Shown one piece after another: positions 34,703 through 36,476 of a stretch of 64,000 nucleotides of DNA. The notes under the pieces are model-generated. The model worked only from the letters and a program-made list of their open reading frames with translations, ran no database searches and was not told where the DNA came from. Source of the DNA: Acetobacter okinawensis (GTDB lineage Bacteria; Pseudomonadota; Alphaproteobacteria; Acetobacterales; Acetobacteraceae). Made by a program: the position numbers and the translations under genes. The stretch is from contig NZ_JOPJ01000002.1 in assembly GCF_002153655.1 (NCBI RefSeq), positions 62,001 to 126,000 of the forward strand, given 5' to 3'. The stretch's first letter is position 1. The number at the start of each line of letters is the position of its first letter.

Positions 34703-35716
34703 TTACAGGGTACTTTCCAGCACCCCGTACCAGCCAAGGCCCTTATAGGTTTCGTAACCGGGGGTATGGGCATAAGCAATCAGCTTGTCGCCACTCACAT
34801 AATAACCCCGCTCCTCCTGCGGGGTGAACTTGCAATACTCGCCCGACACACCACTGCCAGTGGACGATGCAATAATACGCTTGTGCGCATCCACCAGCAT
34901 AACCCGCGTCTGGCCCCGTTCTACATCGGACAGACGCACGCCATGTACAATGGCCTCTGCCTGTGGCGCCCAGTCAAATGCTATGCCCAGCACACCCAGC
35001 ACCTGCCCGCGTGCTTCCCCCCCTGCGCGGATGGCGGTGCTGTAAATGGCAGCCTGTTCATTATTGAGCGCTGGCACACGGTTTACATCGGCCACCGCGT
35101 AGTCCTCGCCACTTTGCGTGCGCATGGCGCGCACAAACCATGCTTCGCCCGACATATCATACCCAAGCAGGGAGCGGTGCGTTTGTGGGCGACCGCACGC
35201 CACCACCTTGCCACTGGGGTCCACCACAAAAAGGTCCAGATATACTGTGTAGGATTTTAAAATTGTAGCCAGACGGTCCGCTGCATACTGGTACGCCTGA
35301 GGGGTACGGCTCTCCAGCGCCTGCACCATGGCACTGTCTGTAGCCCACCACCGCACATCACACGAACGCTCGTACAGGTTGCGGTCAATCAGATCGACAA
35401 CGTTCAGGGCCAAATCAGTCAGGCGCTCCCCCCGGCCACGCACGAGCAGGTCATTCCCCGCTTTTAGCAAACGGTCCGTGCTGCTGTCAGTAGCGGTGCG
35501 CAGTTCGGCGGCGATGCCAACAATGCGGGTGGAAATACGCCCCATTTCATCAGCCAGAAGGCCAAAGGCCGCTCCGGCCTGCCCCACACGGGCGGCCTCT
35601 ATACGGGTGTTGATGGCAAGAAATTTGGCTTCGTTCATGACCGAAGCGATCAGATGAATTTTTTCCCGCGTCATTTGAGAAACTTCATAAGCAAGTTTGA
35701 GAATATCGTCTTGCAT
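34703..35716 (-). CDS. Soluble MCP-like signalling segment joined to a C-terminal Cache domain
   Basis: The N-terminal 90 residues resemble the methyl-accepting chemotaxis protein signalling hairpin (MNEAKFLAINTRIEAARVGQAGAAF, LLADEMGRISTRI). The remaining 240 residues read like a Cache sensor (YLDLFVVDPSGKVVACG, YDMSGEAWFVRAM, VLGVLGIAFDWAPQAEAIVHG, VMLVDAHKRIIAS). There is no signal peptide or membrane helix, so both parts should be cytoplasmic. The order is the reverse of a normal receptor. The ATG at 35716 is chosen; an ATG at 35788 would add 24 residues. No che genes are near. Function is unknown. Confidence 0.75.
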   Translation of the reverse strand: MQDDILKLAYEVSQMTREKIHLIASVMNEAKFLAINTRIEAARVGQAGAAFGLLADEMGRISTRIVGIAAELRTATDSSTDRLLKAGNDLLVRGRGERLTDLALNVVDLIDRNLYERSCDVRWWATDSAMVQALESRTPQAYQYAADRLATILKSYTVYLDLFVVDPSGKVVACGRPQTHRSLLGYDMSGEAWFVRAMRTQSGEDYAVADVNRVPALNNEQAAIYSTAIRAGGEARGQVLGVLGIAFDWAPQAEAIVHGVRLSDVERGQTRVMLVDAHKRIIASSTGSGVSGEYCKFTPQEERGYYVSGDKLIAYAHTPGYETYKGLGWYGVLESTL

Positions 35717-35910
35717 GCGGGATGTGTCTTTCAATTCGAAAACGGAACAATTTGATGTGGGAAGGGACACGACCATTCTCACCCACATTCAGGCAGAATA
35801 TGCCCTATCCCCCTGTTCTGCCTAAATTATTCTGACCTGTAAACTCCCGCCATCTGGCCTGTTCCACCATACTCACGCGCATTTGACAGGCCGTGACCGC
35901 CCCGTCATGA

Positions 35911-35954
35911 ACACACTCAGACACACACTCAGACACACACTCAGACACACACTC
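35911..35954 (+). repeat. Tandem 12-bp repeat upstream of the DUF3465 gene
   Basis: ACACACTCAGAC is repeated 3.7 times in perfect copies, ending about 22 bases before the likely ATG. If translation began at the in-frame ATG at 35907 the repeat would encode TLRH units. Confidence 0.85.
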
Positions 35955-35975
35955 CATTCAGCAACAAGGATTGTC

Positions 35976-36476
35976 ATGACCTGTTTTAAAAACCGTATGG
36001 CCCTGTGGGCTTTATGTGCGGGGCTGGGTCTGTCTGGCCTTGGCCAGTCTGCTCAGGCACGCCACAGACACGCTCAGGCAGAACAGCCCCAAACCGTATC
36101 GGCCACATGCGATAATCAGGATTTTCTGAACAAACAGCAGACGTTTGAAAAAGGTGGCCCAAAAGCAGACGCTGCCGTGCATATTTGCGGCACTGTGGTT
36201 GCTGTATCACCAGCAGCCAAAGTAACCCGCAGCGGGCGACATGGTTATTTTTACATGACAGTCGCCCCCAATATTTCCATCCGTATTGTGACCAATCTGG
36301 ATGAAATGCACACGCCCGCATGGCCGTGGGTTGCCAAAGGGGACCATGTGGAGGTGGTAGGCCGCTATTATTATGACTCACCCCGCCAGCAGGGGGTGGA
36401 CTGGACGCACCGTGGTACCGGCCGCTCATGGGGGATTCCGGGTTATGTGCGCGTCAACAACACCCAGTACGACTGA
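35976..36476 (+). CDS. DUF3465 family secreted protein
   Basis: The ATG at 35976, with AAGGA six bases upstream, gives a signal peptide (KNRMALWALCAGLGLSGLG, cleavage near the QSAQA segment). The mature part follows DUF3465: a CDNQDFLN start, AAVHICGTVVAVSPA, SGRHGYFYMTVAPN, VAKGDHVEVVGRYYYD and a closing HWTH-like VDWTHRGTGR. The family is predicted to form a small OB-like beta-barrel in the periplasm, with no proven activity. Two mature cysteines could form a disulfide. A 12-bp tandem repeat precedes it, and a strong hairpin follows. Confidence 0.82.
   Translation: MTCFKNRMALWALCAGLGLSGLGQSAQARHRHAQAEQPQTVSATCDNQDFLNKQQTFEKGGPKADAAVHICGTVVAVSPAAKVTRSGRHGYFYMTVAPNISIRIVTNLDEMHTPAWPWVAKGDHVEVVGRYYYDSPRQQGVDWTHRGTGRSWGIPGYVRVNNTQYD

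What the first reader, a model, noticed from the sequence alone, without database searches (positions are those of the whole stretch)
34703..35716. Soluble protein with an MCP-like signalling segment placed before a Cache domain
Seen: an MCP hairpin-like N-terminus (residues 1-90), then a Cache-like sensor, with no signal peptide or membrane helix. Known: in normal receptors Cache is periplasmic and precedes the signalling tip. Inference: a cytoplasmic sensor with reversed order, possibly acting without a flagellar chemotaxis system, since no che genes are near.
Basis: partly seen in the sequence, partly recalled or inferred. Interest (0 to 1): 0.5.

Follow-up and report, generated by a model that had tools for sequence, protein, structure and literature searches.

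The report
Cytoplasmic mini-chemoreceptor with rear-mounted sensor
This Acetobacter gene encodes a small, membrane-free protein in which a bare chemoreceptor tip comes before a Cache sensor domain; the same design is found across many bacteria, and it probably lets a sensor inside the cell feed the ordinary swimming-control system.

Summary
Window 34703-35716 (-) encodes 337 residues. The N-terminal ~90 residues fold as a chemoreceptor signalling hairpin (1-96 on Tsr 346-441, rmsd 1.2 A), about 90-337 as a double Cache; no membrane helix is predicted. The order is a family trait: MCPsignal in 77 of 77 and dCache_1 in 75 of 77 aligned members, nearly all from Proteobacteria; a capped scan gave 590 relatives, most not inspected.

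The inference that it may act without flagellar chemotaxis is not supported. The genome has cheY-cheA-cheW-cheR-cheB-cheY-cheD beside flagellar genes, and in our samples the gene occurs only in genomes with CheW: 11/11 genus, 22/22 family, 30/30 phylum, 50/50 named carriers. The closest relatives found outside the family are Cache-Cache-CheW fusions; membrane Cache-HAMP-MCP-PilZ receptors are more distant kin.

Best reading: a non-methylated cytosolic chemoreceptor reduced to the kinase-facing tip, controlled by a C-terminal Cache through the Cache's first helix, the opposite polarity to membrane Cache receptors. Chemoreceptors with C-terminal sensors (TlpD) are known, so it is a new variant of a known kind. 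Ligand and CheA/CheW binding are untested.

The parts
34703..35716 (-). Gene for the 337-aa hairpin-dCache protein (stop codon included)
35429..35716 (-). Residues 1-96: short antiparallel chemoreceptor signalling hairpin (kinase-facing region only; first arm starts at residue 1-2, turn near residue 45)
   Evidence: Pfam MCPsignal; profile vs PDB; AlphaFold and Foldseek/VIA
35564..35611 (-). Residues 36-51: hairpin tip NTRIEAARVGQAGAAF, equivalent to Tsr N381-F396
   Evidence: Column counts over 77 sequences: N36, G45, G48, F51 77/77; R43 74/77; E40 65/77
35330..35431 (-). Residues 96-129: joint helix (Cache helix 1) with family signature RNLYERSCDVRWWATD; the most conserved part
   Evidence: mean column conservation 0.87 against 0.71 for the tip and 0.64 for the rest of the Cache (the scan patterns bias this upwards); 21 of 34 positions also invariant in the 16 sequences of A1, gathered without that pattern
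34706..35329 (-). Residues 130-337: rest of the double Cache domain, ending on its last strand with no C-terminal output helix
35717..35788 (-). Possible 24-residue upstream extension if translation starts at the ATG at 35786-35788; judged less likely

Best explanation
The protein is a soluble mini-chemoreceptor. Its N-terminal ~90 residues are a shortened chemoreceptor hairpin holding only the part that docks on CheA and CheW; the double Cache domain on the C-terminal side binds a small molecule or senses a state in the cytoplasm. Because the Cache is joined by its first helix and the chain ends at its last strand, the signal must leave the Cache through that helix and run along the second arm of the hairpin to the tip, where it raises or lowers CheA activity. 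The target is the single CheA/CheW pair of the flagellar chemotaxis system. With no methylation helices it would report without CheR/CheB adaptation of its own. Shown here: sequence, domain order, folds by prediction, absence of a predicted membrane segment and of methylation motifs, the che cluster in the genome, co-occurrence with CheW, and related Cache-Cache-CheW fusions. Inferred: dimerisation, binding to CheA/CheW, signal path, and that the Cache has a ligand.
For: Hairpin. Tip residues N36, G45, G48, F51 kept in 77/77, R43 in 74/77, E40 in 65/77. Cache fold. Two CheW-domain proteins in the genome, one CheA and one CheW; CheR, CheB, CheD, two receiver proteins, FlhA, FliP and FliN on the same stretch. 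Carriers versus CheW: genus 11 of 49 carry the gene, all among the 27 with CheW (Fisher p 4.5e-4); family 22 of 299, all among 234 (p 3.6e-3); phylum 30 near-full-length of 398, all among 328 (p 2.4e-3); 50 of 50 carrier genomes tested. Kin of the Cache: Cache-Cache-CheW fusions, 94.7 and 87.0 bits to the window protein, CheW domain found in 4 of the 5 such proteins seen. Joint helix the most conserved region.
Against: No binding or taxis data exist here. The gene lies outside the che cluster, and no neighbour shared across lineages was seen in 80 loci. The window protein scores below Pfam's cut-off for MCPsignal, and its tip departs from the usual QTN/GRGF residues (EAK, GAAF), though some relatives show similar changes. 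Species are related, so the co-occurrence p-values overstate independence: the 11 Acetobacter carriers form about two identity groups. Two of those 11 copies, and 2 of the 30 phylum copies, carry a frame break or in-frame stop while CheW is kept, so the protein is dispensable or decaying in places. One of the five fusion proteins (L135) gave no CheW match.
Confidence: 0.72

Rival explanations
1. Non-activating modulator or decoy: the short hairpin occupies CheW/CheA or inserts into receptor arrays without forming proper trimers of dimers, so that the Cache controls how much it disturbs or sequesters the arrays rather than acting as a true kinase-controlling receptor.
For: The hairpin has only about 45-residue arms and hardly any methylation motif. 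At the position matching Tsr F373 the six commonest residues are R 36, G 11, N 7, Q 5, S 4, A 4 of 77, and the QTN before the tip is mostly replaced; F373 as a trimer contact is recalled, not from a call.
Against: Most other tip residues are kept, R43 in 74/77 and E40 in 65/77. TlpD, a soluble receptor with a coiled coil about half the usual length, keeps a Tsr-like kinase interface linked to its ligand site (PMC12871147: abstract, sections 7 and 8 read).
Confidence: 0.17
2. Che-independent cytosolic sensor: the hairpin is a dimerisation or protein-protein module that works on another partner.
For: The gene is an orphan in the window and has no common neighbour in the 80 loci examined.
Against: No carrier among genomes in which no CheW was found: 0 of 22, 0 of 65 and 0 of 70 in genus, family and phylum samples; 50 of 50 tested carrier genomes have CheW; kin fused to CheW.
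Confidence: 0.07
3. The Cache part is a mechanical or dimerisation element without a ligand, and the protein is a structural part of arrays.
For: No ligand is known. The amino-acid-sensor arginine is absent: window E191, R in 1 of 77. The PAS of TlpD has been proposed to be mechanical (PMC12871147 section 7).
Against: Residues W193 (76/77), F194, R230, F247 and W249 (77/77) are kept; W and F at 193-194 fit the aromatic pair shared by amino-acid, amine and purine dCache sensors (PMC11245519, passages; matched by eye).
Confidence: 0.1

Closest known systems
TlpD / McpA-type cytosolic chemoreceptors with a C-terminal CZB domain
   Same: Not membrane-bound, coiled-coil hairpin before the sensor, shortened hairpin, no canonical methylation sites, sensor attached to the second arm (PMC12871147: abstract, sections 7 and 8 read)
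   Different: The sensor is a double Cache, not a zinc-binding four-helix bundle; the protein starts at the hairpin and has no N-terminal PAS
Membrane dCache_1 chemoreceptors (PctA, Tlp3, McpH)
   Same: The same double Cache fold and the same family of signalling tip
   Different: There the Cache is extracellular and can signal only through its C-terminal membrane helix (PMC4822843, passages); here it is cytosolic, C-terminal and attached by its N-terminal helix
Cache-HAMP-MCPsignal-PilZ membrane receptors of the same family (L140-L142)
   Same: Distantly related Cache with an RNLFER helix (47-50 bits in the two compared) and a similar tip, LALNATIEAARAG
   Different: Cache N-terminal after a hydrophobic N-terminal stretch, full signalling domain, PilZ at the C-terminus
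DctB sensor domain (C4-dicarboxylate histidine kinase)
   Same: Closest solved fold: Z 20.0-21.7, rmsd 2.1-2.6
   Different: Periplasmic; sequence similarity not significant (E 0.27)
Cache-Cache-CheW fusion proteins (L130, L131, L134, L136; no name known to me)
   Same: Homologous Cache with the RNLYER..D.RWWA helix, chemosensory partner domain
   Different: Two Cache units and a CheW domain in place of the hairpin; 860-940 residues; a membrane segment in L131 is not excluded

Membership tests
Methyl-accepting chemotaxis protein (canonical, PF00015) | Signalling hairpin tip homologous to MCPs | tested here: met
   77 of 77 members match MCPsignal at E<=0.01; the window protein alone scores 29.1 bits, below the cut-off of 34.6; profile vs PDB 1.4e-16; fold rmsd 1.2 A on Tsr
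Methyl-accepting chemotaxis protein (canonical, PF00015) | Methylation helices and sites | tested here: not met
   Strict motif in the first 120 residues of 1 of 77 members (not the window protein), relaxed motif in 18 of 77; three of the four other MCPs of the genome have the strict motif, the globin-coupled one does not. The first arm starts at Tsr 346, so helices with Tsr's methylation sites (positions recalled) have no counterpart
Methyl-accepting chemotaxis protein (canonical, PF00015) | Membrane helices and HAMP | tested here: not met
   Hydropathy and Pfam
Methyl-accepting chemotaxis protein (canonical, PF00015) | Physical coupling to CheA/CheW | not testable with these tools
   Only co-occurrence and kin fusions
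Cytosolic chemoreceptors with a C-terminal ligand-binding domain | No membrane segment; sensor C-terminal to the signalling hairpin | tested here: met
TlpD/CZB chemoreceptors | CZB zinc-binding domain | tested here: not met
   The C-terminal domain is dCache
dCache_1 (PF02743) | Double Cache fold and profile match above the cut-off | tested here: met
   47.8 bits against 45; Z 21.7 with DctB; 75 of 77 members match at E<=0.01
dCache_1AA amino-acid sensors | Arginine two residues before the conserved W (PctA R126 and W128, as named in PMC10104139, passages) | tested here: not met
   Window E191; R in 1 of 77; position set from W193 by eye
dCache_1AA amino-acid sensors | Aspartate equivalent to PctA D173 | tested here: inconclusive
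   Likely position 246 is A here and F or H in most members, placed by eye without a formal alignment to PctA
dCache_1PU purine sensors | Full purine motif | not tested
   Only the W-F pair 193-194 is seen; the other positions need a structural alignment

The most novel reading that the evidence does not exclude
A widespread, so far undescribed class of cytosolic Cache sensors plugs directly into the CheA-CheW core complex by two routes, as a minimal chemoreceptor tip fused in front of the Cache (this gene) or as a Cache-Cache-CheW adaptor. Both read the inside of the cell; the first signals through the first Cache helix, the reverse of the membrane Cache receptors from which the module may have been cut.
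Probability: 0.45. Interest if true: 0.65.

Novelty: new variant of a known kind. Interest (0 to 1): 0.46.

Why it matters
Cache domains are treated as the standard extracellular sensor of bacteria, whose only way out is the C-terminal membrane helix (PMC4822843, passages; that paper puts 78% of Cache domains outside with confidence, so inside ones are not unheard of). A large family that keeps a complete double Cache in the cytoplasm and attaches it by the other end makes two questions directly testable: can a Cache signal through its first helix, and how short can a chemoreceptor be and still control CheA. At about 337 residues it is small enough to be convenient for structure work and reconstitution with CheA and CheW.

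Tried and rejected
Conserved gene neighbourhood as a clue to the ligand: all-against-all comparison of ORFs (at least 90 aa, E<=1e-15) in 80 loci gave, among the 40 largest clusters printed, no neighbour shared across lineages. Nine loci hold a protein that looks by eye like a membrane MCP, and four Magnetospirillum-like loci have ORFs that look flagellar by eye only; the other shared ORFs are local synteny or antisense shadows. The surroundings of three Cache-CheW-type proteins were fetched, but their ORFs were not family-scanned; by eye they show no che operon.

A straight helix instead of a hairpin: DSSP reports residues 2-113 as one unbroken helix in both models. Rejected, because the model superposes on the solved Tsr hairpin (1-96 at 1.2 A, 1-114 at 1.9 A) and the first 15 Foldseek rows are all chemoreceptor entries, the next row being at E 0.28. 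VIA Z values near 11 do not separate helical hairpins in general (ESCRT-III chains score the same), so I rely on Foldseek and sequence.

Hidden membrane helix: two of 77 members reach 1.6 or more on a 19-residue window, both in the Cache strand GVLGIxFDW. L131, one of the fusions, reaches 2.04 in one stretch.

Nearest kin: three weaker Cache-only matches of the family search were also examined and turned out to be Cache-MCP-PilZ receptors with a hydrophobic N-terminus, 47-50 bits in the two compared, against 94.7 and 87.0 bits for the fusions. 'Closest outside the family' means among the genomes searched (E<=1e-30, capped list).

Ligand guess: DctB is the closest fold, but the sequence match is not significant; no ligand is assigned. 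Promoter and terminator scans around the gene gave nothing usable.

Literature: ten searches (listings, with passages of some papers) turned up no account of a cytosolic dCache chemoreceptor or of a Cache-CheW fusion. The list of at least 17 C-terminal sensor types in a supplementary figure cited in PMC7390727 (passages) could not be read, and dCache may be on it. The 2014 review of cytoplasmic chemoreceptors (PMC4248653) is not held.

Full report
What is there. The gene at 34703-35716 (-) encodes 337 residues; the longer 361-residue reading from an upstream ATG is possible but unlikely, since the A. peroxydans and A. suratthaniensis homologues have no start further upstream in that frame. The genome is an Acetobacter by its closest named relatives: an uncultured Acetobacter MAG (93%), A. 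lovaniensis (91%), A. peroxydans and A. suratthaniensis (72%). It is 2.72 Mb in 147 contigs.

Domain order. Pfam gives dCache_1 at 1.7e-12 (47.8 bits, cut-off 45) and MCPsignal at 1.1e-6 (29.1 bits, under the cut-off of 34.6). In an alignment of 77 members (A2) all 77 match MCPsignal and 75 match dCache_1 at E<=0.01. The A2 profile finds solved MCP tips at 1.4e-16 (4jpb, profile positions 19-81; 2ch7 positions 6-107/108). AlphaFold of the whole protein: mean pLDDT 88.3. Residues 90-337 superpose on the DctB sensor, Z 21.7, rmsd 2.1, 219 residues. Tip residues equivalent to Tsr N381, G390, G393 and F396 are present in 77 of 77, R388 in 74 and E385 in 65. No membrane stretch stands out by hydropathy, and the strict methylation motif occurs in 1 of 77.

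The joint. Residues 96-129, which run from the hairpin into Cache helix 1, are the most conserved part (0.87 mean, against 0.71 for the tip and 0.64 for the rest of the Cache). The genome-contig scan used patterns in this very stretch, which inflates the figure. But in A1, gathered by whole-protein search, 21 of these 34 positions are invariant in 16 of 16 sequences. The last Cache strand ends at residue 336, and relatives extend a median of 4 residues further, at most 49, so there is little room for a C-terminal output helix. I infer that the signal leaves through helix 1.

Spread. Pfam checked both domains for 76 of these, and the 21 family loci show the same order in translation. The 80 include Acetobacteraceae, Sphingomonads, Caulobacter, Azospirillum, Magnetospirillum, Methylobacterium, Burkholderiales, Bordetella, Halomonads, Ectothiorhodospira, two Verrucomicrobia and one MAG labelled Solirubrobacteraceae. 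On plasmids there are 9 matching records, 4 annotated as methyl-accepting chemotaxis protein. In the tree of 98 rows the Acetobacter copies and one Acetobacteraceae MAG fall in a supported group (100/99) with Sphingomonad, Halomonad and Ectothiorhodospira copies, apart from those of 21 other genomes of the same family, which suggests horizontal movement or an old duplication.

Chemotaxis context. I saw no che genes near the gene in the window, but contig C62 holds MCP, CheY, CheA (760 aa: Hpt, dimerisation, ATPase and CheW domains), CheW, CheR, CheB, a second receiver protein and CheD, with FlhA, FliP and FliN on the same 18-kb stretch, and elsewhere on C62 FlgD and two more MCPs, one protoglobin-coupled. 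Within the genus, 11 of 49 genomes carry the gene and all 11 lie among the 27 with CheW; none of the 22 without a CheW match has it. Family sample: 22 of 299, all among the 234 with CheW. Phylum sample: 32 of 398 at E<=1e-30, of which 30 cover at least 314 of 345 model positions (two of these weaker, E 6e-59 and 5e-46; two with one in-frame stop); all 32 lie among the 328 with CheW. Named carriers: 50 of 50 tested, out of 80 loci. One-sided Fisher p: 4.5e-4, 3.6e-3 and 2.4e-3 (30 copies). Shared ancestry makes these too small, and the samples overlap in the window's genome; without it they are 8.1e-4, 4.6e-3 and 2.9e-3. CheW is common anyway (234 of 299, 328 of 398), so the genus sample, where only 27 of 49 have it, is the most telling.

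Unexpected relatives. The two remaining phylum matches are proteins of 880 and 862 residues with two Cache-like units, each with a version of the RNL(F/Y)ER helix, and a C-terminal CheW domain (Pfam CheW 6.3e-20 and 3e-11). The window protein aligns to the second unit of L130 at 31% identity over 241 residues (94.7 bits) and to that of L131 at 37% over 158 (87.0 bits). The best solved periplasmic Cache reaches 13.7 bits, E 0.27 (a different program, so only a rough comparison). Five of 398 genomes have a match to the L130 protein at E<=1e-40; CheW is found in four of the five (L130, L131, L134, L136) and not in L135. A second kind of kin are receptors with Cache, HAMP-like region, MCPsignal and PilZ and a hydrophobic N-terminus (L140-L142): their Cache aligns at 47 and 50 bits in the two compared, and their tip reads LALNATIEAARAG, close to the family's. 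A fusion of this Cache kind to CheW is independent support that such cytosolic Cache domains serve the CheA-CheW complex, and the membrane receptors suggest where the parts came from.

Comparison. C-terminal-sensor chemoreceptors are a known but 'poorly characterized' subfamily with at least 17 sensor types (PMC7390727, passages), best exemplified by TlpD, which also lacks the canonical methylation sites and has a shortened coiled coil (PMC12871147, abstract, sections 7 and 8). Cache families are principally extracellular, except Diacid_rec and YkuI_C, with 78% of Cache domains confidently so (PMC4822843, passages). The present family differs in its sensor, its minimal hairpin and its joint. 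It is therefore a new variant of a known kind. It should not be filed as a canonical methyl-accepting protein, because membrane segments and methylation sites were tested and not met, but it most likely works like a chemoreceptor.

What remains open: partner binding, sign of the response, ligand, and whether it forms homodimers or joins mixed arrays. The amino-acid-sensor arginine is absent (E191; R in 1 of 77), so a classic dCache_1AA ligand is unlikely.

Noticed in passing
L130:1329-3968 (-), L131:2409-4994 (-), L134:1462-4095 (-), L136:1426-4233 (-): Proteins of 860-940 residues with a C-terminal CheW domain; L130 and L131 show two Cache units homologous to the window's. 5 of 398 phylum genomes match, the fifth (L135) without a CheW hit. 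No che operon seen by eye around three of the five.
   Followed up: partly
L140:3245-5677, L141:3288-5810, L142:38-2611 (-): Receptors with a related Cache, MCPsignal and a C-terminal PilZ domain, possibly c-di-GMP-linked chemoreceptors and a possible source of the window gene's parts; PilZ is above its cut-off only in L141.
   Followed up: partly
L121 (G317) and L125 (G339): Two of 11 Acetobacter copies look broken: one match is split between two frames, the other has an in-frame TGA, while CheW is kept.
   Followed up: no
L036, L039, L116-L121 versus L037, L038, L122-L125: In the A. lovaniensis group the gene sits between PPK2 and the ClpA-side ORF as in the window; in the A. peroxydans group those neighbours are absent from the fetched flanks (8 kb each side in L037 and L038), so the gene moved or was gained separately.
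   Followed up: partly
tree of 98 rows: The Acetobacter copies group with Sphingomonad/Halomonad/Ectothiorhodospira copies, apart from those of 21 other genomes of the same family; the two Verrucomicrobia copies nest inside proteobacterial groups.
   Followed up: partly
L128:2305-3828 (-), G000 contig C62: The genome also encodes a protoglobin-coupled chemoreceptor.
   Followed up: no
window 35883-36476 (+): A 197-aa ORF next to the gene has no Pfam or NCBIfam match at E<=1 but is conserved (74-86%) beside it in the A. lovaniensis group.
   Followed up: no
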